Assembly: GCA_036939755.1 (NCBI GenBank) | Contig: JALLAZ010001015.1 | Span: 1 to 16,277 of the forward strand | Direction of reading: 5' to 3' | Length of the DNA stretch: 16,277 nt | DNA from: Stephanodiscus triporus | Taxonomy: Eukaryota > Bacillariophyta > Thalassiosirophyceae > Thalassiosirales > Thalassiosiraceae | Position numbers and translations under genes: made by a program | Notes under the pieces: generated by a model | The model's input: only the letters and a program-made list of their open reading frames with translations | Told to the model about the DNA's origin: nothing | Databases searched by the model: none | Shown here: positions 729 to 16,277 of the stretch, piece after piece | Position numbering within the stretch: the stretch's first letter is position 1 | Layout of the letters: each line of letters opens with the position of its first letter

Positions 729-3700
729 ATAAGTTGACACAGCACCCGTTATCTGCAAACCAGCCAGGGGATTCCTCGCCGGTTGTTACTACAATTGGTC
801 TCACGTCCAGCGCTCCCCCCACCTTTCATGATTCCCCAGCGAGCTCTAGGGTAGACCTCGGTTTTGAGCCTGCCCGCGCTCTTCCGCCTCCGCAACCACC
901 TCCGAGGGGGACTCAACGACTAACTGTTGCCACGATCAAGAGTCGTGCGGAACCTACGCGTCCAATGACACCTTTGGTGTCGTACCACGTTCCACTAGAT
1001 AAGGCACGCCCGGTGGCGGCTGTGGATGATGACTGTTGTATCCCCCCCGGCTCTTCGGCGGATCCTAGCATCCTCCTCCGTCCTGCGTCTCCGACGACAC
1101 CGTTCGAGTTTCCATTTCACGGCCCAGAGAAAACGTATTGTGATTATAACGTGACAGGCGGGCTCCCTAGTGAAACGCTCATGGATAGCGTCACTCATGT
1201 CGTCGGTTTGCCACGGGTGTGTGGCCTGGCTCTGGACAGTGACTTGGTTGTGTCTGTGTCACGTGCAAGTACTTCTTTGGAGCATGGGGACAACACGTCG
1301 CTGATGGATGGCGGGGCCAACATTTGTTTAACGGGAATTTTAGACCTACTGGTGGATGTCGTTCCCATTGCCCCTCTCCCTATCTCAGTGGCTACGAAGA
1401 CAGGAGTTGTATCCTTGGATGATTGTTGCACTAAGAAGGGCCTGATGCCACTGACACTGGCCGATGGCTCCGTCTATTACCAGCCATGCTATTATTGCAA
1501 GAATGCGGTTGAAACCATTATTTCTCCTCAGGCTGTTCTCGCGTCCAGTGATATTCTCGTTCGTTGGACACAAACGGGTCACAAGGACGGTAGCCATGGC
1601 ACAATTCGATTTGACAGTGATAGTGGGCTCTACTCCATCGAGATGACATTAGAGAATCGGGATGGTCTATATTACTGTCCTACTGATGTTTTCACGGTCG
1701 ACAAGGACCCAGTTCGGTGCAATACTCCGGTGATTCGACGGACACTTATACCGCCACCGCCGGTCACCCGGCGGCCCAAAGATTACGTACCAGTGTCACG
1801 GACTCGCCTCACCGAATCCGAGCTCTGGATGTTACGGCTGGGATCCCCGGGAGAAGACCAGCTCGACCTACTCCATGGCCGTGTAACTGGGATCCCTCAC
1901 AGTTTCCAGTATCACCCATTCCGATATATCGACTGGAAAGAGGAGGCCCGGGTACAGAAGCAAGCCGCCGGGAAAGCTGTTGCGCGGACTACGGAAAATG
2001 GCCGCCGTTTTTATATGGACTTTGGTTTCATGCGGGCGTCGGCTACGGACTACTCCACACCAAATAAGAAACTTGATCGGGTTGTCGACTCTTGGGATGG
2101 GTATTCGTCGTATCTCCTAATCGTGGACGAGGCGTCACGGTATATTTGGGTCTTTCTCACAAAGTCTAAGGAGCCTCCCCTGGACATTATCGATACCTTC
2201 TTAGACCGATTCGGCCATGCTGATGGGGGATCAGTCCGTTCGGATCAGGGTGGGGAACTCGCACGTTCTTTTGCATACTCCGACATGCTCTTACGGAAGT
2301 ACAAATATGTTGTTGAACCCACCGGCGCGGATAGCCCATCACAAAATGGTGCTGTGGAGATATACAATGCCAAATTGGCCGTGCGAACACGCACTTTGCT
2401 TTTCGGATCGGGCTTACCCGCTAAGTACTGGTCGTCTGCTTTGGTTCATGCTGTGTACTTGCACAACAGGCTGGTCCATACGGTGTCACGGACGACGCCT
2501 TTTGAGGCCTTCTTTGGGGCGCGACCGGATCTGTCGTGTCTTAAAGTCTTTGGGTCGAGGGTTTGTGTGAAGCGTTCGGGCTCCCGTCGTAGCAAATTGG
2601 ATCGACATGACTTCAAAGGCATCTTCTTAGGGTACACCGCCACGGATCAGAATATTATATATCTTGATCTGGACTCGGGTATGGTAAAATCGAGCCACCA
2701 TGCTCAATTTGATGAGGCCTGGTATCTCCAGTCTTCTCGTCCCCCGGCCGCTCAACTTTTATATGATTTGGGTGTCCTTCCCGAGGACGACCCCTTGGGC
2801 GATCCTCTGGTGGCTCACCATCCTGGTGATTCTACCATCAGTCCTGTCGGTTCACATAAGCCGGTCGCGGTGCCATGGCCCCCTATGGCAGCTACAGGAG
2901 ATTATAGTAAAAAGTGGTCTGTCCCTCCGACGAGCCGCCATATGCACTTACCCCTCCGATCTATCACGGAGACGCCTCCGAAACCTATTCGGGCTCGGGC
3001 TGCACGGACAAAGCCGGCACGGGGTCGCAATTTGGCTGCGGAACTGGTCGCGGATTTTAACATCGGACTACAGGACATGGCGATGGTTTACATGTCTCCT
3101 GACCCTTATCACGAAGCATTTGAACAGACGGTCGACCTCCGGAAATTTGATTTGTCACATATTAAAACGGGGGGTCTCAATCTCTATGAACGAGACGGTC
3201 GGGTCCATCTTGCATCCATCTCACCCGGTACCCCGGCTGCTCGAATTCATGGCTGGCGTGCACGGGTCCGTGGTGCTTGGCTTATTAAGGTTGGCGCCAC
3301 TTGTGTAACGAGTATTGCCGATGTGGTTACGGCTTTTGATACTCTCCGGGACTCCAAATCTCCTTCGGTGACTTTGCTGTTCTCACATCCGGAGATCCGC
3401 CCCAATCTATCTCAGGACGGGATTCCTATATTGTCTTCGGCCCCGTTCTCGCAACTCACTCACGACCAGCTCAATAATCGATGGGAGTTCTCCACTGTGG
3501 CCGACCACCTCAGGACGTGCAAACCGTCGTCCAAATATGTGGATTCAGGTGGGGTCCTCAATCTCGTAACCAGGGTGATGCGCCTGACACGAGGTAAACT
3601 ACTAAAGCAACAAGATTGGGACGAATGGCAGTCTTCTGAATACTTGCAACTGGATCAATATGACGCGCAAGGGATGTTTGGCCTACCAGTCCCATATGAC

Positions 3701-5485
3701 AAGGATGAGGATAAGGATACTATGTCTGTCTTCCACTCGGTGTGGACATATGCAATAAAGGCGTTGGACTCACGCAAGAAGGCGCGTTGGGCTTGCGATG
3801 GCTCGCCTCGTTCCGGACAAGCCAGGATATTGGATGAGACCTATGCTAATTGTGTGGATCAAACAAGCTCTCGACTCTTTTATGCTGTCTCGGCTGCTGA
3901 GAACCTCATGATTTTCGGTGCTGATGTATCGAACGCTTTTGCCGAAGCTCCCCCTCCCAAGCAAGGTTTTTACATATATCCAGATCGAGCCTTCCGCGAA
4001 TGGTGGGTCAATCACAAACGGCGTTCTCCTATTCCAGAGGGTACGGTCATACCTATCTTATCTGCTATGCAAGGGCATCCTGAATCTCCTCGGTTGTGGG
4101 AAAAACACGCTGATGCTATATTACGAGAATGCGGCCTTGTACCGACTGTTCATGAGCCATGTCTATATTCTGGTTTTATTTGTGGTAAACGGGTGATATT
4201 TAAGCGCCAGGTCGATGATTTTGCTATTGCTGCTCCTGATGAACACACGGCGACTGTGCTCTTAGATATGATCGACGACAAGCTTACTATCCCGATGAAA
4301 CGTCAGGGTTTCCTCGACATGTACAATGGTATTGATGTCTTACAGACTCGACATTATGTTAAGATTTCGTGCACTACATACATCGAGAAAATATGCGACA
4401 AATACCTTCAGACATGGATGCGCAATTACACCAGTCCGGATAATCGTCCTACACCACTTCCTACGGACCCAGCTTGGATGAAGAAATTCAATGCTGCAAC
4501 TGGTGATCCTGATCCTAAGGTTCAAGCACTATTGGCTAAAAGTATGAACATCGGATATCGTAGTGGGGTCGGTGAACTGATTTGGGCGATGACGACATGT
4601 CGGCCCGACGTATCATTTGCAGGTGTCAAATTATCGCAAGCGAACTCTTGTCCCCATGAGCATCATTTCCATGGTTTAAAACACGCCCTGAAATTTCTTT
4701 ACAGCACGAAAAATGATGGGTTATATTATTGGAGAACAGCTCCTCGCGCCGAGTTTCCGGAAGGCCCCCTCCCGCATATCCATAGCAATAAGCATGACCT
4801 TCTCTTAGATAACCGACCAGAACACGACGCGAACGTTCTTCATGCATACGCGGACTCTGATTGGGCTTCTTGCGTCAAGACACGGCGATCTTTTGGCGGC
4901 TCGTGCATCCGCCTCGCGGGAGGTACAATTGCCTACAAATCTAAATTTCAACCGACGGTTGCGGGCTCGTCTACCGAAGCGGAATTCATGGCTGCCTATG
5001 ACACTGGTAAGATGATACTATTTGTTAGAAGCATTTTGTGGGACTTGGATATACCACAGGAAGCTGCTACTATTCTATACGAGGATAATGACGCGTGCAC
5101 TGCAATGGGAAATGCGCAGAAGCCAACACCGCGCACACGTCACATTGATATTAAGTATTTCTCGATTTGTGAATGGATCGAACGAGACCTGATGATTTTG
5201 GAGCGAATTGACACCACGATTAATATGTCAGACCATTTTACGAAAGGTCTATCTCGGGCTCTGTTTCATCGACATGCGGATTATTTACTGGGGCATGTTC
5301 CTCCAGCGTACTCGCCAATTTACAAGTCTACTATTGGGACGTACACAAATCAACATGTCGACTTTGAGCAATTTGTTCCTTTCTCATTCACAACACCCAT
5401 GACTGCGGCCGCTGCTAGAGTATTTGCCCCGATTACAGAAGATTACATGGGGAACCCTTGGTTGGTGATTCTCTGGCATGGTTAG
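692..5485 (+). CDS. Copia-type Pol polyprotein (PR-IN-PDZ-like-RT-RNase H)
   Basis: This is the full Pol of a CoDi-like Copia element, in frame with Gag after the TGA at 689-691. No ATG lies in this frame before 965, so expression probably depends on readthrough. Residues are numbered from the codon at 734. A proline-rich linker leads to the protease site D192-G-G-A, where Ser or Thr is usual after Asp. The integrase core has D429, D504 (RSDQGGE) and E542, spacing DD37E; no canonical HHCC zinc finger is obvious before it. A PDZ-like segment sits at about 812-887. RT shows motif A D1064 (GADVSNAF) and motif C Q-V-D1161-D1162. RNase H has D1374 (YADSDW), E1415 or E1417 (STEAEF) and D1451/D1453. 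A 50-residue tail follows. No frameshift or internal stop is seen, so the coding part looks young. Family assignment is firm; the exact lineage is not. Confidence 0.92.
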   Translation, partial: LGYDPSRCVGTGHKLTQHPLSANQPGDSSPVVTTIGLTSSAPPTFHDSPASSRVDLGFEPARALPPPQPPPRGTQRLTVATIKSRAEPTRPMTPLVSYHVPLDKARPVAAVDDDCCIPPGSSADPSILLRPASPTTPFEFPFHGPEKTYCDYNVTGGLPSETLMDSVTHVVGLPRVCGLALDSDLVVSVSRASTSLEHGDNTSLMDGGANICLTGILDLLVDVVPIAPLPISVATKTGVVSLDDCCTKKGLMPLTLADGSVYYQPCYYCKNAVETIISPQAVLASSDILVRWTQTGHKDGSHGTIRFDSDSGLYSIEMTLENRDGLYYCPTDVFTVDKDPVRCNTPVIRRTLIPPPPVTRRPKDYVPVSRTRLTESELWMLRLGSPGEDQLDLLHGRVTGIPHSFQYHPFRYIDWKEEARVQKQAAGKAVARTTENGRRFYMDFGFMRASATDYSTPNKKLDRVVDSWDGYSSYLLIVDEASRYIWVFLTKSKEPPLDIIDTFLDRFGHADGGSVRSDQGGELARSFAYSDMLLRKYKYVVEPTGADSPSQNGAVEIYNAKLAVRTRTLLFGSGLPAKYWSSALVHAVYLHNRLVHTVSRTTPFEAFFGARPDLSCLKVFGSRVCVKRSGSRRSKLDRHDFKGIFLGYTATDQNIIYLDLDSGMVKSSHHAQFDEAWYLQSSRPPAAQLLYDLGVLPEDDPLGDPLVAHHPGDSTISPVGSHKPVAVPWPPMAATGDYSKKWSVPPTSRHMHLPLRSITETPPKPIRARAARTKPARGRNLAAELVADFNIGLQDMAMVYMSPDPYHEAFEQTVDLRKFDLSHIKTGGLNLYERDGRVHLASISPGTPAARIHGWRARVRGAWLIKVGATCVTSIADVVTAFDTLRDSKSPSVTLLFSHPEIRPNLSQDGIPILSSAPFSQLTHDQLNNRWEFSTVADHLRTCKPSSKYVDSGGVLNLVTRVMRLTRGKLLKQQDWDEWQSSEYLQLDQYDAQGMFGLPVPYDKDEDKDTMSVFHSVWTYAIKALDSRKKARWACDGSPRSGQARILDETYANCVDQTSSRLFYAVSAAENLMIFGADVSNAFAEAPPPKQGFYIYPDRAFREWWVNHKRRSPIPEGTVIPILSAMQGHPESPRLWEKHADAILRECGLVPTVHEPCLYSGFICGKRVIFKRQVDDFAIAAPDEHTATVLLDMIDDKLTIPMKRQGFLDMYNGIDVLQTRHYVKISCTTYIEKICDKYLQTWMRNYTSPDNRPTPLPTDPAWMKKFNAATGDPDPKVQALLAKSMNIGYRSGVGELIWAMTTCRPDVSFAGVKLSQANSCPHEHHFHGLKHALKFLYSTKNDGLYYWRTAPRAEFPEGPLPHIHSNKHDLLLDNRPEHDANVLHAYADSDWASCVKTRRSFGGSCIRLAGGTIAYKSKFQPTVAGSSTEAEFMAAYDTGKMILFVRSILWDLDIPQEAATILYEDNDACTAMGNAQKPTPRTRHIDIKYFSICEWIERDLMILERIDTTINMSDHFTKGLSRALFHRHADYLLGHVPPAYSPIYKSTIGTYTNQHVDFEQFVPFSFTTPMTAAAARVFAPITEDYMGNPWLVILWHG
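3167..3394 (+). other. PDZ-like domain embedded in Copia Pol
   Basis: Between integrase and RT (about residues 812-887 from base 734) lies a segment with the layout of a PDZ domain. It has a glycine-rich start (GGLNLYERDG), a strand followed by ISPGTPAA as in the I-x-x-G-S/T-P-A-A step of many PDZ domains, then GAWLIKVGATCV, a helix-like IADVVTAFDTL, and a closing strand VTLLFSHPE. No Copia catalytic motif falls here. The assignment rests on pattern reading, not an alignment; a degenerate linker with chance similarity is the alternative. Confidence 0.55.
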
Positions 5486-5526
5486 TCCAATCTTACATGT
5501 TGGGACATATAAGATTGTGGGGGAGG
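5486..5526 (+). other. 3' end of (+) Copia element: hairpin, polypurine-like tract, junction
   Basis: Right after the Pol stop (5483-5485), 5488-5500 and 5505-5517 form a 13-base inverted repeat with 12 matches and a TGGG loop. It is followed by GTGGGGGAGG (5517-5526), which fits a plus-strand polypurine tract. A 3' LTR should begin immediately after such a tract, but instead the opposing element's RT coding sequence starts at about 5522. The element therefore lost its 3' LTR at this junction, by deletion, recombination or an assembly join. Confidence 0.5.
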
Positions 5527-7222
5527 CGCCCAGTACCAGAGGACGGATGTTATCTCTCCTCAAGTATTCAATCAGGTGCCTTAATTTCTCCCAATCATCC
5601 CTGTCAGGAGCCCTCACCCTCGTAGTTAGGAATGCAACAGACAAGCACGTATCTGGCCTTGCCCTCTTAGTCACATACAATGTCTTTGCAACGACGGTGT
5701 GGAAATCTGCTGCCATGTCTTCTGGCAACTTCTCACAGTCTTCATTAACCATGAACAAGTTCTCGGGAGCTGGTGTCTCATAACGCTGCTTGGTGACAGG
5801 TAGGAACCCATCATCATATTTCGCAATGGCCACATCATATGCCTTCACAATCTCAGCCACATAGTCATTCATCGTAACGATACACTGTCCCTTGTTGGTG
5901 AAATCCAGAGACATCCCTAGGTATTTGTGAACCCTGCCTCTGTGTACTTTCATCTCGCCTGAGCCATCCTCAAAGATGCTCTCGTATTCAGCCTTAAGCC
6001 AAACGATGGTCTCATCAATTACTTCAGGGACCTCATGAGATATCTTGCAGTCATCAACATGGAAACAAATTGTAATCTGCTTGCCCTTGATGATCTTGTT
6101 AGCCACGCACCCATCATACGGGTTGAGCTTGAATCCTTGGTTCTTGAGGCTCTTGACGAACTTCTTGTAGTATAATAACGCTGCCACCATTGTTCCATAA
6201 ACCGCATTCAGGCATTCGACAATCAAAACCTTCTGGCCGGTCTTGGTGACAGAAACATAGGGGCCATAGACGTCTGGTGCCATTGACACCAGGATATCCA
6301 CCAGTGGTCCCCTGATACGCACCGTCACACGGTGCTCTGCATCCTCCTCACTCACAACTGTTTGGATGAATGCATTTGGGATATCAACAACAGCAACATC
6401 CCTATTCTCTTGTGCATCAATTACACATGTGAGCATGACTGCTTCAGCCGTCACAGTTGGGGAGCTTACATCCTCTTTAGTAATGTAGTCACGTTGCTTG
6501 TTGCCACCAATCACCTTCCGTGCTTTGATGGTCCCGTCCCGTTTCTCTTCAACAAAGATATGGGACTCAAGTAGCTGTTCCTTCTGCTTCTTGGTTAGTG
6601 TGTGGTAATGCTTCGGCACGTAGGAGTTACGCCAGTGGAGTTGCTTCATCTCCTTTGATATGGCAAATCTCGCTTTCTCCCCCCACTTCTTAATGGCAGC
6701 CTTCATTGATAGTTGTGCCATAATCATGCCGACAATATCAGCTCTTCTATGTTCTCCTTTGGACATGAGTTTCACAGACATCTGAGCCATTGCTAGTCCA
6801 TGCTTTGATTCCTTGAGGGATTCAGCAATCTGCGTCATTGCAACTGCATACTTCTTCCCCTTCATGGCAGGGGCATACTTCTCAGGAGGCTTCCTCACCC
6901 TAGCATTCCTTGCTGCCATTCCTTGGCTGGGCGGTGCAGGGTCCAGCACGGGCGCTTCGTTGGGCTCGCCGGTTGGTAGGCGCGCGGTTTCACACTCGTG
7001 GGACGTTTCTTGAGGCTCCTGTTTGAGTCCATCTTGTAGATCAAAGTTAGTTTCGTTGGGGACATGTTCTGGGTCCACCTCCACTCCTGTGGGCTCTACA
7101 AGGGACTCCTCAGGCACTCCTGGGATTTCGTTGTCATCCTGCAATTCCACTAGGAAATCATCAGTATAATCATATACAACATCTGAGCCATCATCATCTG
7201 CCACCGGTAGATCTGTCGCAGC
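5522..7222 (-). pseudogene. Truncated Copia Pol fragment, RT module only
   Basis: A second Copia element, on the opposite strand and from a different lineage. Numbered from the GTG at 7204, residues 1-100 are the acidic and proline-rich linker that normally lies between integrase and RT. RT follows with V-V-D274-I-P-N-A-F (motif A) and F-H-V-D384-D385 (motif C). RT-connection sequence runs to LVLGAS at about 5522, where homology stops just before RNase H. Gag, protease, integrase, RNase H and both LTRs are missing. No stop or frameshift lies within the retained part. The frame runs open on the 5' side to a stop at 7244-7246 and on the 3' side to 5384, but both extensions are junction read-through (into the palindrome array, and antisense to the first element's end). 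The RT identity is firm; the exact edges are within about 20 bases. Confidence 0.85.
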
Positions 7223-7767
7223 TAAAATCGAATATTTGGATTTTCAATAATCGGTGCCGATAATTGATTTTACATGATTTGGCTAGCCATGTAAAATCGA
7301 ATATACATACCCAAAAATCTTATTACGTAAGTCATATTTGATATTACATGGCCAGCGATCGTGTAAAATCGAATATACATGACGTGGCAGGCCAAGTAAA
7401 ATCGAATATGGAATTCCCATATTGGATATTACATGGCCAGCAATCATGTATATTCGATTTTACACGAGGATCGCTGGCCATGTATTATCGAATATGGGAA
7501 TTCCATATTTGATATTACATGGTGCGAAAACCATGTAATATCGAAAATGGGAATTTCATCCACATATTCGATATTACATGGTTTTCGCGCCAAGTAATAT
7601 CGAATATGGAATTCCCATATTCGAAATTACATGGCATACGTGCCATGTATATTCGAATATATATGGTCTATTCTAGCCATGTATATTCAAAAATAGCCAA
7701 TGTTCAATATTTGTACCTGTAAAATTGAATATCGGCATGTAAAATCGAAAATCCGAATATTCGATAT
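7222..7767. repeat. AT-rich array of alternating inverted 18-bp repeats
   Basis: About 18 copies of the motif ATATTCGATATTACATGG, or its reverse complement CCATGTAATATCGAATAT, occur with small changes (the central ATA often becomes TTT). Examples: 7263-7276, 7287-7304, 7334-7351, 7361-7376, 7392-7409, 7419-7436, 7478-7495, 7505-7522, 7531-7548, 7564-7581, 7590-7607, 7617-7634, 7643-7660, 7716-7732, 7735-7752. Copies face each other in pairs around spacers of roughly 8-10 bases that differ between pairs, and pairs are joined by linkers centred on GGAATTCC. The result is a string of foldback units. No coding capacity is seen. It could be a foldback or MITE-like element, or a palindromic satellite. 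Confidence 0.85.
7405..7509. repeat. Long palindrome inside the array
   Basis: Bases 7405-7441 are the reverse complement of 7473-7509 at 35 of 37 positions, with a 31-base loop. Each arm contains one array motif plus the GGAATTCC linker and the block TTACATGGCCAGC or its complement, so the unit is a higher-order inversion of the array. Confidence 0.85.
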
Positions 7768-7870
7768 GAGATTGGTGGAAACATAGTTTTCTAAGATTTT
7801 TTGCAAGAGGAATTGAACCAAAACAAGTAAATATTATTTTTAGTATCGTACTATTTTCGAGACAATTGGT

Positions 7871-7920
7871 GGCAGTGTGGTGGTGGAGGAGGATGGCAGC
7901 GTGGTGGTGGCAGTTGTGGC
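7871..7920. repeat. GTG-rich minisatellite
   Basis: A G-rich tract holds two copies of GGCAGYGTGGTGGTGG at 7871-7886 and 7895-7910, followed by a shorter related stretch to 7920. It stands out against its AT-rich surroundings. No function is visible. Confidence 0.6.
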
Positions 7921-8055
7921 GATTTCCACTCACCACTGCCATTGCCATGTTAAAGATAGATGTTGACTTCTTGAAAGTGTGTACTACCCTCTCTCTAGAG
8001 GTTTTTTAGTGTGTATGGTATGTCGGTACGATACTACCACCATTTTTAGAGTTTT

Positions 8056-8235
8056 GTTAACCTCGATATTAGAGTTAACCGAGATATTAGATGTTAAAAA
8101 CTCTACGTAGGAATAATACTAAAAATATCAGAGTAACCGAGATATTAGATGTTAAGTAAAATATCAGATGTTAACTAACGCGGTTAACATCTGATATTTT
8201 TCGTATTATTCCTACGTACAATTTTTAACATCTGA
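8056..8235. repeat. Second foldback region with direct and inverted repeats
   Basis: A perfect 22-base direct repeat occurs at 8076-8097 and 8134-8155. A perfect 18-bp hairpin is formed by 8158-8175 and 8183-8200 with a 7-base loop. A competing inverted repeat pairs 8104-8132 with 8190-8218 at 28 of 29 positions, and weaker complementarity extends outward (about 8088-8103 with 8219-8234). The recurring word is ATCAGATGTTAA or ATTAGATGTTAA. It is unrelated to the array at 7222-7767. No coding capacity is seen; a MITE-like or foldback remnant is likely. Confidence 0.8.
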
Positions 8236-9466
8236 AAACACGTGAAAATCGACCGCGCGGGAATGAAAACTTTCAAAACGTTACATTTTCGCGTGTGCAA
8301 CATGTGCTATCACACATAACCATCGCCCGGGTCTCAATGAGAGGGTTAGGCTAATTAATTTTCATTTGACAAGCAAGGATAGTAGAGCATAGAGTATCGT
8401 AGTCTAATTTGTTTTTTAACAAAATTTCCTCTGCTCTCTATAACATGGGCAGCTACAATCGAAAGTCGGGGATTATCAATTTTAGCTGCGCCAGATCCTT
8501 TGGGAGGGAAGGATAATGACGTTCGTACAACATAGTACTCTAGGTATGTCGTAACATACGTATGTACGCCAATGTCTTCTGTGACTGTCCGAGAGGGCGG
8601 CAGACTGAGATTGAATGACGTGTTACTTTTTGAGAACTTATATCGTAGTCGTGAAGAACAAAAGATGTCGGAATGACACAATTCACGAACAAATATAATA
8701 TTCATAAGACGCCGTCTGAAAAAATGTTCTGTTTCAGCAGTTCAATATTCAAAAGAAAATCACGGCCTCAACATATTTTATGTGAACATAAAAAAATAAA
8801 CTCACGAAGAGATGAGAATGAGCATAAATAAATACGATCAGCTCGTATGGTAGAGGCAAAAAAGTCTCTGGGATAAAAGACTGGCAGCAAGCACAAGGCA
8901 CAATCATTTTAGAAGAAGAAAGGTAAGCATCTCATGCTAGCGAGATCCTGGTTTTGTGCGTCAATTGGCTTGTAGTGGGCGATGATGTGAATCAACAGCA
9001 TGAGAATTGATGAAGAAATATGATGATGGTCTGTTTATCAGCCATGTTTTCGTAGCGTGGACAATTAATTATTAGGCCACCTTCAGCGGATAATTCGCTA
9101 CTGGGTCTCTATGTTATTTGTTCCTCGTTTTATCACTGAGATGTCGAGGGCAGAATCATTGCACAGGCGTTGCCCCTTGCTAGCATGTGCCGTAATGGAT
9201 AGCGATATTAACTTCGTTTTTCATGTATGTAGATTCGGTTGACTCGGCTTTGCGGATTTTTAATAGGGGTGGTGTGGGGAAGATAATTGACATTGTATTA
9301 TTTTGTCTCACCATGTCGTCCCGAATCTGGTTGTTATTGCCGCAATCAAATAATCTGTATCTGTTGAGACTAGGACTAGTAGAGCCGTGAGCCCTGACGC
9401 CAGAGCATACACAGCTACTTAATGCTGCACACATAATTTGCACAGATCAAGAATATTCCCGCATCA
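8236..9466. other. Spacer upstream of the NTPase-TPR gene
   Basis: About 1.2 kb without a recognisable gene or RNA. A reading frame at 8355-8705 (-) and another at 9180-9443 (-) have no familiar motif and are not called. A small perfect hairpin, ATACGA-TCAGC-TCGTAT, lies at 8832-8848 next to an AT-rich stretch (AAATAAATA). The promoter and 5' UTR of the gene at 9467 should be here, but no clear core promoter element can be named. Confidence 0.5.
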
Positions 9467-12400
9467 ATGAAGCGAAGCAGCATATCAGTCACCCGCTTTG
9501 TCAGTAAACGCAATTCTGACGCAAACGACGATGACAATTCTAAAAGTTCCGACGACAGCGACTACAATAAACTTGGTGAAACCTTTTCCCGAGCGACAAA
9601 ATTCCTCGGCACAATTGTAAAGGGTCAGAATAGCAATGGTGACAGTTATCATGATTCCAACCTCGACATTGATCAATATCTTAATGAAAGATACAAAGAG
9701 GTGAACGATTATAATCTTTACAATAACTTTAGGAGAGAAAGTGGTGCGACGATGACGAACAATTATTCGAAGAACGAGAATATGGCCACGGTAGACGACG
9801 TTTATTCCGATGATGCAAGTCAGGTGACAATGCCACCACTTGACGAGGGAAACCTGGGCGATATTGCGAAAGCTGAAGAAAATGATCGTGGCCGTGTCAA
9901 TGACTGGGCATCTGATGTATTGTCACAGTCCGCCGAGATCGTTGCTACGGGTTCGACCGCGCGGCGTCGTTCGTCTGAAATATCCTCTAGCTATTCAAAT
10001 CCACTCGTACAGTCCTGCGTGAACGTTGGTACGATATCGACCGCTCGGCGACGTTCGTCTGAAATATCTTCTGGCGTAAAGAATTCCGTTTGGTCATATA
10101 TTGCTGGTGACAGCGTGTCTGCAAGCGCCACTCTGGATAGCCCTGGTGATATGGATTCTTCCGATTCTCTCCTAATAGATCACCATGCGAAGTCACGTGC
10201 CTCTTTTGTGAGACGCAACATGTCCCAAGCTGCGACCGGAACGAAATCGTTTCGGGATGTACAAAAATTAATGAAAGACAAAGGCGCTGTAACTGGGAAT
10301 GCGATCAGATACATGTTGCAGGAGGCGGCCGAGGAGCATGCTGCCAAAAATGTGACGAGTGTTTTTGATGAGATTGAACCATCAAAACAACAGACACCAC
10401 GGTTCAATGGGGGTGAGACTGCCAATGATTGTTCTGACAACAATTATCTTGGAGATGCTGTCTCGAAAATTGAAGAACGATCATTACAACAACACGAAGC
10501 ACAACAACTGCGTCTCGAGCGAGACCCGATGTTTGGAAAATTCAGCGATACTGTCATAAGGCCATACATTTCAATACCGTCACGTGAATCAAAGGTTGAG
10601 ACATTAATGGTCCTCCTTCGCAATGTTGCAGATTTTGGCGAGAGCCGATTACTGACGGTGCATGGGACGAAGTTTGTGGGGAAAACGAAGCTTATAAAAC
10701 ATGTCATCGACACGGTGCAGAGTCAAGGCTTGGGATATACAGTGCTTTCATCGGTGCGGTCGGCAAATGATATACTTACATCATTCTTCTGCTTTCGTGA
10801 GATTACGAGTGCAGCATTGAGGGCGTGTGATTCAGTGACTGAGTCCTTTGATGAAAATAATGACCTTGAACAAGCTGGAGACATCCAGCGAGAGTTGAAA
10901 GGGGACGAAGATGACGAATTAAAATTGATATTAGAACGGCTCAAAAGTAGGAAGATTCTGAACAAATCGGATCAATTGATGATCAGCCGGATCTTACCCG
11001 CGGTAATGGATGACCAGCTGCTTAGTTTGCTCAAAGGTCGTAACCCTACAGCATTGATCAAGGACATTGCATCCTCCTTATTCAAGATATTAATTCCACT
11101 GCAACCTTTCTGCTTTGTTTTCGAGGCAGATGGAGATGATTGCGATATTGATCCAAGCTCGTGGGATTTAATTGAAGAAATGCTGCTTTCGGCAGGGACT
11201 CAATGTCCTCAAATGTTAATGATTGCAATGTCCCGACATTCACTTTTGGATCATGTCCCTCCAAGTGTCATTGCCACTCAACTTGTCAATATCCATATCG
11301 AAAAAATGGATAAATGTGACACTGCATACTACATCCGAGCCTTATTTTGCGACACAAATATCGATCGAAACATGCAGATAGATCCTCATGTGGCAGATGC
11401 GGTGTATCACCGTGCAAACGGCTGTCCTCTCTTTACAGAACGGATTGTTTTGTGGTCGCAAGGGAAGGATTTAATTGAGTTGGATGAAACACGGAACTCT
11501 GTGGCATTGAATTTACCCATGATCGTTCGTAATGATCATGAGCATGGCTGTGATTCATCCAATCACGAGGTGTTGCTGCTAAATACTCTACCCGCAAATT
11601 TGAACGAAGAAATCTTGGAGAAAATCAATAATCTACCACATCAGTTACTAGATGCGTTGAAAATCGCGGCCCAAATAGGGATCACGTTTGATGTTGACAA
11701 GTATGCATCACTATGTCTCCATGGTTTCCACGACTCCTTGCAGGAGTTAATCACTAGCCATGGTATATTTTACAAATTGAATGGCCACTGCTACAGGTGG
11801 AGACACGTTGCCGTGTACGAAGCGGTTTTAACTATCATCATCTCAAACGAACGATTTGAGATACAGAGCCGTATTGCCGATTCGTTGCAGGATTTGCCCC
11901 TGTCTCGTATGTGCAATAATGGTGTTCAGTACGCTAGGCATTATGTATTGGCAGAGCGATGGGATGAAGCTTTCGATCGATACATGGAGGCCGGGGATAA
12001 CGCAGAAAAGAAACACGACTTCGCTGGCGCCGTTGGAATTTACCAACAAGCAAAAATATGTCTGACGAAGACAATAAATAATCATTCGTTGCAACGCAGA
12101 TTGTCCCCTCACGCCGCATTGGGTTTGTGCCTAAGAGAGCTCATGAGATATGACGATGCGGAGGCAGAGTTAGAGTTTTGCCTGAGTCAAATCATGACTG
12201 TGCCAGAACACCTGCGGAATGCCGATATTGAACTTGAAGTGGTTACAACCCTCGCGATGCTGAAACAATATCAAAGCAAATATTCTGAGGCATTGGCGAT
12301 GTATGCACGCGCCCTGCCATTAGCCCGTGCCAACAAAGAGAGGCACACCAAAGTATGGCTCGCGCATCATGTCGCTTCGTGTGCAGAAATACATCGAAAA

Positions 12401-14227
12401 GCAGGTGACCTTTTGCAGGCCAAGACCTTGCACACGGAGGCGTTGGCGTATCGTGAGCTGGCAGTAAAAGAAAAGTCTTGCACGGTTCTTGAACTGGCGA
12501 TATCGTTCACCCAGCTGGGATGCACCATGTCGGGCCTTGGTGATAATTCGTGCGCCTTCAATCTTCATAGAAAGGCTCTTGCTGCACGTGTTGGTCATCT
12601 TGACTTTTATCACAGTCTCGTTTCAGAATCGTGAGTTCTGTAATGTTGGTTGTGTTCGTTGACCAGATGGATGCTTTTGTTCAATAAAATGCTTTTGATT
12701 TTTTCCCACAGCCTGAACTATTGCGCAGATGCACTTCAAGCGTTGGATAGAGGCTGTGAAGGAGTTCCATTGAGTATGCACGCGGTCAAGATAAGAAAAT
12801 TTGTATTCGGATCTAATCACCCTGCCTACGCTCATGCGCTGTCGGTTCTTGCGTCATGCTACCACCAAGTAGGGCGATCTGTCGACGCGCTGGGTCTCCT
12901 TGAGGAGTGCTTAGAGATATGCGAGAAATCATTCTCCAAGAACCACGCCAACATGATCCCGAATCTCATGCTCTATGGAGCAGTTTTAAGTGTGATGGGC
13001 AATTGTGAAAAGGCCAGGGTTGCTTATACAAGAGCTCTCGATATTCACAACATGAACTTCACAGAAGAACAGAACACAAACCAATTAGCCAGATTGCAGA
13101 ATGCGCTATCATCCGTTTGCGTAGAGCCACAAACAAAGGAAAATGCAATTCTTGGTATGCCTATTTCATTCGAGAGCTCAAAGACGAATGTTGTAGTTTG
13201 TGCGGATTTTGGACATCGCTCCAGTGATGAGTACATGTTATGTTGCGCATCATCTTTACAGAGAATGGGCATCCTCAAGCTTGTGTCCATTGTAGCCGTC
13301 AGCCCTCCTCAGGTAGCGCAAGCGAACATTGCACGTGAAGCATTGGACAGCCTGCTGTTATCAAACGTTCCCGTTGCTTATGGTACATCATCGACATCAG
13401 AAAGTAGGACAGCTAACGATGCAACATTAAGTGCCAACTATGGCACACATTCTGCCCGCATGAGTAATACTGGAGCCGAGCTGCTAAGACAAGTCTTGCT
13501 GAAGATGCCAGAGAAGTCTCTTGTTATCATGTGCACCGCTTGCTTCGATGTTGTTAGCGAAGTGATTGACACCCACCGTGATTTGTTTGCCAGCAAGGTG
13601 AAAGAAGTTGTTATAATTGGTTCTGTCAAGCCCGTGAGAAAAAGAGTTTTCATTGAACCTGAAGATTTTGGCGGGGATAAGGAAGATATATTCGCAAAGG
13701 ATGTGTATTCGGCTTGTCAAGAATTGAATATTCCAACTGTTACCTTATTCAAAAACGTTGCACGAGGTTTCCCATTTTCAAGCTCGCTAGTTGATACCTT
13801 GGTGTTGTCAAATCACATGGTGAGCACCAAAATCCAACAAGCCGAAGAAATGCACATGAATTCTGTTTGGGAAGTGATTAAGCAACTCAAGTCAGAGACG
13901 AGTTACTTTTCACCAAATAATGTGGACGTAAAAAGATTTCACAAGTATTCGCTCGGGGGGGAGCCCCCAACTGCCGGTCAACGTAATATTTGGCCATCAA
14001 TCAAGTCTATCAATCTTGAGTTAGTATTTGGGCTCTTATGCTGCATCTCCACTTATCAAAATGCTCACTTCCGATGGGAAAGTCATCAAGTGAAGGGCAC
14101 AGTACACAAAGTTTGTCGTCATTCCAACTCCAAAGTTGGCATTATCAATGCCGAAGCACTTTCAAATGAAATTTATATGCTCATTGGATTTGCATTGCGA
14201 GTATCACTCGCCAACACTTCTTGTTAG
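9467..14227 (+). CDS. STAND/AAA_16-like NTPase with TPRs and nucleoside-hydrolase-like C-terminus
   Basis: Spliced CDS 9467-12630 joined to 12712-14227, predicted 1559 residues. Residues 1-340 are low-complexity and acidic, with RRRSSEISS twice (166-174, 194-202). The NTPase spans about 360-670. RESKVETL (373-380) sits where AAA_16 proteins have the GRE-E-L entry motif, the Walker A is G400-x4-G405-K406-T407, a hydrophobic strand F548-F552 ends in E553 at the Walker B place, and NGCPLFTERIV (651-661) resembles the G-N-P-F-x-x-E motif of adenylate-cyclase-10-like and MalT-like NTPases. TPR-like repeats cover about 826-1150. From about 1213 to 1435 the order of motifs follows nucleoside hydrolases: V-V-V-C-A-D1220-F-G with D1227-E1228, then VPVAYGT, LVIMCTACFDVV and EVVIIGSV. 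An unassigned tail includes W1482 and ends in ANTSC. Inferred role: a ligand-gated switch with a nucleoside- or nucleotide-directed or pseudoenzyme output. Domains are called by eye; NTPase and TPR are firmer than the C-terminus. Confidence 0.8.
9947..10075 (+). repeat. Duplicated Arg-Ser motif in the NTPase-TPR protein
   Basis: The encoded peptide STARRRSSEISS occurs at residues 163-174 and 191-202 (DNA about 9953-9988 and 10037-10072), conserved at base level apart from third-position changes. R-R-R-S-S fits basophilic kinase sites of PKA, AMPK or CaMK type and possible 14-3-3 docking. The kinase assignment is inference. Confidence 0.7.
12631..12711 (+). other. Spliceosomal intron (81 bases) in the NTPase-TPR gene
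   Basis: The donor is GTGAGT at 12631-12636. The acceptor follows a pyrimidine tract, TTTTTTCCCACAG, ending at 12711. Removing it joins TC to C (a Ser codon) and keeps the frame, continuing a TPR helix pattern across the junction (SLVSES then LNYCADALQ). Without splicing a TGA is met at 12632-12634, two codon positions into the intron. The length is typical of short protist introns. Confidence 0.88.
13187..13830 (+). other. Nucleoside-hydrolase-like domain (possibly degenerate)
   Basis: Within exon 2, the segment at residues about 1214-1427 copies the motif order of inosine-uridine nucleoside hydrolases: an N-terminal strand with an Asp motif, a helix, then LVSIVAVSP, IAREALDSL and VPVAYGT, a long helix, a strand LVIMCTAC where the family has a G-P-L-T-N-like turn, and KEVVIIGSV. 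The calcium-binding signature DxDxxxDD is altered: Cys-Ala-Asp replaces Asp-x-Asp, and Asp-Glu follows after a short insert. Catalytic His-Asp near the C-terminus is not evident. It may have lost or changed activity. Confidence 0.5.
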
Positions 14228-14697: not shown

Positions 14698-16277
14698 CTA
14701 TTTTCGATCATTTTTTGTCAAAAATTCCTGACGTATGCGCTGCAATTCTGCAATCCTTGTCAAAAATTCTCCCCGCATGTTCCGGTGATGTGCCAGTGGA
14801 TGATGCTTTGTAAAGTAATCTGCCAGATTTGTTTTACCGGGCTTCCAATAAATTTTGAATTGTCCCTGTTGCTCCCTATCCAACAGCCACTCAAATCGAA
14901 TGTCCATCGATTCGGTTCACCTCGGTCGGACTTGTGAGTTTATTACTCCCTCCGCCATCGAATTATCGGTTTGGATTGGTGTTCGTGGTTGGGGGTGCCC
15001 CATCTCGGATAATATTTGTCGCATGTGAACTGCCTCTTTTGCATTAATAAATAATGCACCCAATTTGGCTTCCGCCGCAGAGGACATCACCGCATCAATA
15101 ATCTGAGTAATGGTAAGTACGGCACCATTATTTTGGCTGTCATTGGAGAGGAAAAAATGACCCCCCGCTCTGCTCCATGCTCTGCTTTCATTCAAATACC
15201 CCGCGCCACTGTGAACATTTAATATTAAATCACTCGCGTGGTAAGTTATTACCACTTCTTCCTGACTTGCACAATAGTCGAGTAATTGTCTGACCCTTTC
15301 CATTGTCTTCTGCGTGGGGGAAGCCTGCTGCATTGCAATTGCATTCAAGGCAAGGAGCATAGTTGGATCCACAGCACGAGCATAATTCAACAAAGTTCCA
15401 GTGACAGCTTGGACATATTTTTGTCCCTCTTTGTCCAGTGGTGCACTCAGCGTTTCTGCTTCGACATATTGAGCTTTTGTGCCATATGTTGGGGCAACAT
15501 GTGGATGTGGAGAGTTTTGGATTCGCTGTGGACGTTCATGCCCAAAACGTAGCAATGTCTGGTGATATATCCGGGCATTGACAAGTGGACTCTCTGATTG
15601 GCATAGTCCCAGTCAAAGATAATGCCAATGTATTTAGCACCCGTCCAATCCTCTGAAATTTCATAGTGTTGCTTGAGTATGCTAATCAAATGCATCGCAT
15701 TTTCTTTCCCAACATATTTGACCCCAAAATCGTCAACGACGAGTGTGAATGATATTGGACGGGTTTTGTGAGTCCACAAACCCAGTACTGCCCGACTCTG
15801 TGAATATCCATGCTTGTTTAAATGCTTTTCTAACAATTCTTGTGCTAATATTCCTGCTTGGGGCAAGCCATACATCCCCTTTTGGATTTCAACATAAACA
15901 AAGCCATCAGGAGTTACTTTCTCTTTCAAATTGTACTCAACAATGATCTCCTCTGGAATATCGTCAATTTTTATCTTGACATACTCAAACCGAACCATTG
16001 GCATGTTGAGATAAAAGTTTTTAACGTCCAAAGTCATGTAATGGGCATCCCTCGTGGAGATTACACTGTGCAGTCGGGGTTCTGACATCACCTGGATAGT
16101 GTACTTTGTCGCCCCCCACCATCAAGCAAGTTCGATTGACCTCTGCTTTGTTTGGCTTTAATTCAACAACAAATTTTGCATAAGTGACATCCTTGAAGCA
16201 ATCACTTGGCACTTGGTTTTTGTTTTAAAAAAATATGGTGTCGGTGCCTTGGATTTGGCCTCTTACTCCTTGTGCAA
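14698..16277 (-). pseudogene. Decayed Copia Pol (RT and RNase H), open at right edge
   Basis: The 3' part of a third Copia lineage, read right to left. It begins outside the window with GTDTIFF-type RT sequence. Then come DVTYAKFVV and GGDKVHYPGDV, motif A YMTLDVKNFYLNM, GMYGLPQAG, motif C LVVDDFG, RNase H with SSAAEA and QTDNS, and the end KPGKTNLADYFTKHHP. The lesions are a frameshift at about 16214-16233 near a T/A run, a break at about 16067-16069 that loses roughly ten family residues and shifts frame, a frameshift at about 15556-15562, and an in-frame TGA at 14917-14919. The first catalytic RNase H Asp is also replaced: VHSGAGY has Gly where the family has Asp. It is certainly non-functional as read. 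Confidence 0.88.

What the first reader, a model, noticed from the sequence alone, without database searches (positions are those of the whole stretch)
9467..14227. NTPase-TPR-nucleoside-hydrolase-like fusion: a candidate NLR-like signalling protein
A P-loop STAND/AAA_16-like NTPase, a TPR superstructure and a C-terminal nucleoside-directed domain in one 1559-residue protein is the sensor-switch-effector plan of NLR and STAND immune proteins. Fungal NLR-like proteins carry nucleoside phosphorylase effectors, and nucleotide depletion is a known antiviral strategy. A nucleosidase-type effector at the C-terminus in a diatom would be a new arrangement. Its location among transposon debris fits a rapidly evolving family. 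The immune role is inference only.
Basis: partly seen in the sequence, partly recalled or inferred. Interest (0 to 1): 0.75.

Follow-up and report, generated by a model that had tools for sequence, protein, structure and literature searches.

The report
Diatom switch ATPase with nucleosidase-like tail
A diatom gene makes one large protein that joins a molecular-switch ATPase, a repeat region and a tail shaped like a nucleoside-cutting enzyme whose key catalytic residues have changed; it looks like a conserved single-copy gene, so a signalling role is likelier than a fast-evolving immune role.

The parts
9467..12630 (+). exon 1: N-terminal region, NTPase, winged-helix region, first TPRs (residues 1-1054 plus two bases)
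12631..12711 (+). 81-nt GT-AG intron
   Evidence: relatives continuous across it
12712..14227 (+). exon 2: last TPRs and nucleoside-hydrolase-like domain, stop at 14225-14227
9467..10519 (+). Ser/Asp-rich N-terminal region (residues 1-351), no Pfam hit, least conserved part (29-45% identity to 8 relatives)
9962..9979 (+). first RRRSSE basophilic motif (residues 166-171)
10046..10063 (+). second RRRSSE basophilic motif (residues 194-199)
10520..11251 (+). P-loop NTPase, AAA_16/STAND type (residues about 352-595)
10664..10687 (+). Walker A GTKFVGKT (residues 400-407)
11114..11134 (+). Walker-B-like strand FVFEADG, Glu553 in place of the usual Asp
11231..11236 (+). Ser-Arg motif, S589-R590, invariant in the alignment
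11420..11428 (+). GxP motif (Gly-Cys-Pro, residues 652-654), invariant in the alignment
11252..11956 (+). helical/winged-helix region after the NTPase (residues about 596-830; boundaries approximate, set by eye)
11957..12630 (+). TPR array, part in exon 1
12712..13138 (+). TPR array, part in exon 2
13139..14224 (+). nucleoside-hydrolase-fold domain, XopQ-like (residues 1198-1559; model covers 1200-1559)
13205..13228 (+). rewired Asp motif: D1220, R1224, S1226, D1227
14018..14023 (+). E1491-L1492, aligned with the Tyr-Asp pair of XopQ/HopQ1

Best explanation
It is a conserved STAND-class signalling ATPase of Thalassiosirales diatoms. Nucleotide exchange or hydrolysis in the NTPase-winged-helix part flips the protein between closed and open (probably oligomeric) states; the kinesin-light-chain-like TPR superhelix and the C-terminal nucleoside-hydrolase-fold domain form the input side. 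The C-terminal domain has lost residues that define nucleoside hydrolases and works as a binding module, for a ribosylated small molecule or for a protein partner, not as a nucleosidase. The Ser-rich N-terminus with basophilic kinase motifs is a phospho-regulated output or docking arm. Shown: gene model, module identity and order, conservation, one locus in this genome, residue changes. Inferred: switching, oligomerisation, non-catalytic role, ligand, phosphorylation.
For: Modules and order. STAND features: Walker A, S-R and G-C-P invariant in 17 of 17 aligned proteins; Foldseek's top match of the 702-aa NTPase-TPR model is a solved STAND-TPR protein, 6mfv (E 7.8e-10), then CED-4, with Avs3 at rank 5 and Apaf-1 at rank 22. 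Binding rather than catalysis: of 44 readable members, D101 position D 36, N 4, S 3, K 1; D105 position R 43, H 1; D107 position S 36, C 6, A 1, T 1; D108 position D 44; and D384 position Leu in 45 of 45 read by pattern, also in P0017, which the pattern missed. Roles of these HopQ1 residues: passages of PMC3608555. The domain is nevertheless as conserved as the NTPase (51-67% against 49-69% for 8 relatives), and its distances track those of NTPase-TPR (r 0.98, 136 pairs, 0 of 1000 permutations as high), so it is under constraint. One locus. The N-terminal motif R[RHKQ]x?[ST] exceeds shuffles (at most 17 of 500 as high) in 10 of 15 proteins.
Against: No ligand or ATPase data, and no expression data for this gene itself. 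AAA_16 is below its Pfam cut-off in the window. The NTPase-TPR model has pTM 0.53 and a TM-score of only 0.28 to 6mfv; Cdc6/Orc AAA+ proteins appear from rank 6, and the VIA-align rows lie in the TPR and helical part only. Walker B carries Glu in 16 of 17. A conserved acidic residue sits next to the lost D384 position (E 44, D 1 of 45) and the D108 position keeps Asp in 44 of 44, so an altered metal site, and an altered activity, is possible. The D101 equivalence is by spacing only: the alignment starts after it, and 7 of 44 members have one residue less in the motif. The N-terminal motif excess was weaker or absent in 5 of 15 proteins (29 to 228 of 500 shuffles as high).
Confidence: 0.55

Rival explanations
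1. The C-terminal domain is an enzyme with a rewired active site, acting on a non-standard ribosyl substrate, and is the effector that the STAND switch turns on.
For: The D108 position keeps Asp in 44 of 44 readable members and an acidic residue stands beside the lost Ca ligand in 45 of 45; [quoted passage not shown]
Against: D101 position N, S or K in 8 of 44; D107 and D384 positions changed in all readable members; in the classical STAND layout the N-terminal domain signals and the C-terminal side senses (passages of PMC12881547).
Confidence: 0.2
2. It is a housekeeping scaffold or trafficking protein (kinesin-light-chain or nephrocystin-3-like), with no signalling switch; the NH fold is a protein-interaction surface.
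For: TPRs resemble kinesin light chain (best E 1.1e-12); TPR_NPHP3 and NPHP3_N models match below cut-off; one conserved locus.
Against: Walker A and two further NTPase motifs are invariant in 17 of 17, so the ATPase part is kept; AAA_16 scores better than NPHP3_N.
Confidence: 0.2
3. A rapidly evolving NLR-type immune receptor with a nucleosidase effector, as first proposed.
For: The STAND-TPR layout is shared with NLR-like immune proteins (PMC12881547 passages).
Against: One locus in own genome, conserved domains whose distances go together, catalytic residues changed, only weak TPR hits in the anti-phage library (E 0.034 and 0.0027).
Confidence: 0.05

Closest known systems
HopQ1/XopQ-like proteins (HLPs; solved as 4p5f, 4kl0, 7jlu)
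   Different: The DXXXDXDD motif that defines HLPs is absent in 44 of 44 readable members; the domain is fused to NTPase-TPR, and the main text of PMC6019455 has 0 occurrences of TPR, fusion or multidomain.
Classical nucleoside hydrolases (PF01156)
   Different: No DXDXXXDD motif in 44 of 44 readable members, no curated-level Pfam hit.
STAND-TPR ATPases (6mfv; MalT-type and Apaf-1/CED-4 more distantly)
   Same: NTPase motifs, following helical/winged-helix region, TPR superstructure.
   Different: C-terminal NH-fold domain after the TPRs; N-terminus without a recognisable domain.
Fungal NLR-like proteins with nucleoside phosphorylase domains (recalled)
   Same: Similar general idea of NTPase, repeats and a nucleoside-enzyme fold.
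   Different: Different enzyme fold, usually at the N-terminus, in expanded families (all recalled, not tested here).

Membership tests
STAND NTPases | Walker A GxxxxGK[ST] | tested here: met
   G400, G405, K406 invariant in 17 of 17 aligned proteins; pattern found in 17 of 48 family proteins, the other 31 being shorter pieces
STAND NTPases | Walker B hydrophobic strand ending in Asp | tested here: inconclusive
   Glu in 16 of 17, Asp in 1
STAND NTPases | hhh-[TS]-R strand and GxP motif (motifs recalled from the STAND literature) | tested here: met
   S589-R590 and G652-C653-P654 invariant in 17 of 17
STAND NTPases | overall fold: NTPase, winged helix, superstructure repeats | tested here: inconclusive
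   6mfv is Foldseek's top match (E 7.8e-10) but TM-score 0.28; AAA_16 below Pfam cut-off in the window
NLR / NOD-like receptor | NB-ARC or NACHT domain | tested here: inconclusive
   NB-ARC E 0.2, 11.4 bits against cut-off 23.5; NACHT not listed
NLR immune gene family | family expansion with variable domains | tested here: not met
   one locus by four queries in own genome; distances of the two halves correlate; other genomes not countable
NLR immune gene family | role in immunity or cell death | not testable with these tools
   no phenotype data
Nucleoside hydrolases (PF01156) | NH fold | tested here: met
Nucleoside hydrolases (PF01156) | DXDXXXDD motif | tested here: not met
   0 of 44 readable members
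Nucleoside hydrolases (PF01156) | Pfam curated cut-off | tested here: not met
   no hit in window domain; relatives that hit stay below 34.2 bits
HopQ1-like proteins | DXXXDXDD motif | tested here: not met
   0 of 44 readable members
HopQ1-like proteins | C-terminal Tyr-Asp (HopQ1 Y383-D384) | tested here: not met
   Glu-Leu in 44 and Asp-Leu in 1 of 45 read by pattern, Glu-Leu also in P0017; P0037 and P0047 lack the stretch. Equivalence from the sequence-profile alignment to XopQ, carried to HopQ1 numbering by inference
HopQ1-like proteins | closest structural similarity | tested here: met

The most novel reading that the evidence does not exclude
A STAND receptor with a built-in degenerate HopQ1/XopQ-type domain that senses a ribosylated signal (ADP-ribose, cyclic ADP-ribose or 2',3'-cNMP) and so couples NAD-derived danger signalling to an ATPase switch in diatoms: receptor and nucleotide-signal reader in one chain.
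Probability: 0.1. Interest if true: 0.8.

Novelty: new variant of a known kind. Interest (0 to 1): 0.45.

Why it matters
HopQ1/XopQ-type domains are best known as effectors injected by plant pathogens; I know of no assigned role in algae. A conserved diatom protein that carries such a fold with rewired catalytic residues, joined to an ATPase switch, gives a testable native function for the fold in a eukaryote (ligand reading or docking) and a candidate single-copy signalling protein in ecologically important centric diatoms.

Tried and rejected
A nucleoside phosphorylase fold: the 50 rows shown and are nucleoside/riboside hydrolases or XopQ; those lists alone do not exclude others. Paralogues with other C-termini: none found. 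In one search (P0019, E up to 1) 16 matches came back: the two exons of this gene, 13 weak ones in the TPR stretch (E 1.3e-5 to 0.41; contigs C19, C204, C312, C1060, C621) and one on C78 in the NTPase stretch (E 0.16), not followed. The AAA_16 search of the genome gave 17 matches, not including this gene itself, so it is insensitive; 9 of the 17 loci were scanned with Pfam: several are Cdc48-, Clp- or other AAA-type proteins, and L003 and L004 are AAA_16 proteins with no TPR or NH hit in the 931 and 791 residues read; loci reach only about 1.5 kb beyond each match. tblastn of the full protein against the 19 loci then held gave nothing better than E 1.4 outside its own two loci. PF01156 finds nothing in the genome, not even this gene. 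No relative in viral contigs (3 pattern matches, none confirmed). Relatives outside diatoms: the profile search returned 28 proteins at E up to 10, all of this family, but only the 7997 candidates sharing most words were scored, and the algal HLPs of other lineages named in PMC6019455 did not surface, so absence elsewhere is not shown. NTPase-TPR and NH trees share 5 of 14 splits; most conflicting NH-tree branches have support below 0.45, but one NH branch (0.888) goes against P0002+P0005+P0006 (0.996) of the other tree, and WINDOW+P0004 (0.95) is not recovered; I rest on the distance correlation, which shared ancestry inflates. No Rfam hit in the window. The counts come from a pattern that requires R or H and D at two positions; the 4 unreadable proteins (P0035, P0044-P0046) start downstream of the motif, and the alignments show the same columns without that requirement. 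Literature: searches, judged by their listings (titles and starts of abstracts), showed no paper on this architecture; the library holds open-licence papers only. I saw passages only of PMC8910321, PMC11685791, PMC6019455, PMC3608555, PMC12881547, PMC6856769 and PMC7192161.

Full report
Gene model. The window lies in an unnamed 21.65-Mb genome in 1324 contigs. All 16 long relatives aligned cross the junction without a gap, and one is from a transcriptome collection (P0001). Four short relatives are gene predictions that begin inside a diverged intron and enter the conserved exon at the same point.

Modules. Residues 1-351 have no Pfam hit and are Ser/Asp-rich, with basophilic R-R-x-S motifs above shuffle expectation in 10 of 15 proteins and not clearly in 5, including two RRRSSE copies here. 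Residues 352-595 form a P-loop NTPase: AAA_16 E 2.8e-5, below cut-off; Walker A, an S-R strand and a G-C-P motif are invariant in 17 of 17, Walker B has Glu in 16 of 17. The AlphaFold2 model of 702 residues (pLDDT 78.7, pTM 0.53) has a STAND-TPR protein, 6mfv, as top Foldseek match (E 7.8e-10), with CED-4, Avs3 and Apaf-1 further down, but also Orc/Cdc6 proteins and a TM-score of only 0.28; VIA-align's rows lie in the TPR and helical part. TPRs are kinesin-light-chain-like.

Catalytic residues. Published roles for HopQ1 are D101, D108 and D384 for Ca2+, D107, A263 and N265 for ribose, and Y383/D384 for substrate (passages of PMC3608555); HLPs carry DXXXDXDD, classical enzymes DXDXXXDD (passages of PMC11685791). 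Of 48 family proteins (47 relatives and the window) 44 are readable at the first motif: D101 position D 36, N 4, S 3, K 1; D105 position R 43, H 1; D107 position S 36, C 6, A 1, T 1; D108 position D 44. At the second motif 45 are read by pattern: Y383 position E 44, D 1; D384 position L 45; P0017, missed by the pattern, has E and L too, and P0037 and P0047 lack the stretch. The equivalences for D105, D107, D108, Y383 and D384 rest on the profile alignment to XopQ, not on inspected coordinates; that for D101 rests on spacing. A263 and N265 were not assessed. The set argues against nucleosidase chemistry; the kept Asp and the adjacent acidic residue leave an altered metal site open.

Evolution. 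One search found 19 relatives at E up to 1e-3 with 47-66% identity over the C-terminal part; 16 of the 19 carry the P-loop as well, the other three are 1037-1116 aa long and show none. Names are given for few: Thalassiosira sp., T. exigua, Mediolabrus comicus and a CCRYP locus that I read as Cyclotella cryptica; the three species looked up belong to Thalassiosirales. Identity to 8 full-length relatives is 55-77% for TPRs, 51-67% for the NH domain, 49-69% for the NTPase, 44-67% for the winged-helix part and 29-45% for the N-terminus. NTPase-TPR and NH distances correlate at 0.98 over 136 pairs among 17 proteins, 0 of 1000 permutations as high; tree topologies agree in only 5 of 14 splits. In its own genome the gene is alone: exon 1, the C-terminus and the relative P0041 find only this locus; the relative P0019 also finds 13 weak TPR-stretch matches and one weak NTPase-stretch match (E 0.16). 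The Pfam models PF01156 and AAA_16 do not list this gene in a genome-wide search, so they are too insensitive to exclude distant paralogues.

Interpretation. The layout is that of a STAND receptor, but the family behaves like a conserved gene with one fixed architecture. In the classical STAND layout the N-terminal domain signals and the C-terminal side senses (PMC12881547 passages). XopQ binds ADP-ribose without nucleosidase activity, although it retains its Ca2+ site (PMC8910321 passages). I therefore favour a switch ATPase whose C-terminal NH-fold domain reads a ribosylated ligand or docks a partner. The immune role remains possible but has no evidence here.

Print. Searches, judged by their listings, showed no account of this architecture. 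PMC6019455 reports HLPs in Thalassiosira sp. and its main text has no occurrence of TPR, fusion or multidomain; that protein may belong to this family, which I could not check.

Noticed in passing
window 734-5485 +: Long open frame of a Ty1/Copia-type retrotransposon (integrase core, SH3, RVT_2); a protein search lists 39 match places in this genome, its own included, the best other one 85% identical on contig C739 (30 of 142 candidates scored, so a lower bound).
   Followed up: partly
window 5384-7204 -: Second, oppositely oriented RVT_2 frame overlapping the end of the first.
   Followed up: no
window 7300-8500: Repeat-derived stretch with internal inverted self-matches and many diverged fragments elsewhere in the genome (88 match pieces for query 7300-9300, those other than the full self-match all within 7300-8510), perhaps a non-autonomous element upstream of the gene.
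   Followed up: partly
window 14917-16091 -: Downstream of the gene: a frame with a sub-cut-off RVT_2 match (15447-16091) overlapping another frame without a convincing Pfam hit (14917-15555), probably a Copia-type remnant.
   Followed up: no
window 14213-14224: The protein ends in Asn-Thr-Ser-Cys, and 46 of 48 family proteins end in Thr-Ser-Cys; I know no targeting or modification signal of this form.
   Followed up: no
G000 contigs C19, C204, C312: Clusters of other kinesin-light-chain/NPHP3-like TPR stretches in the same genome.
   Followed up: no
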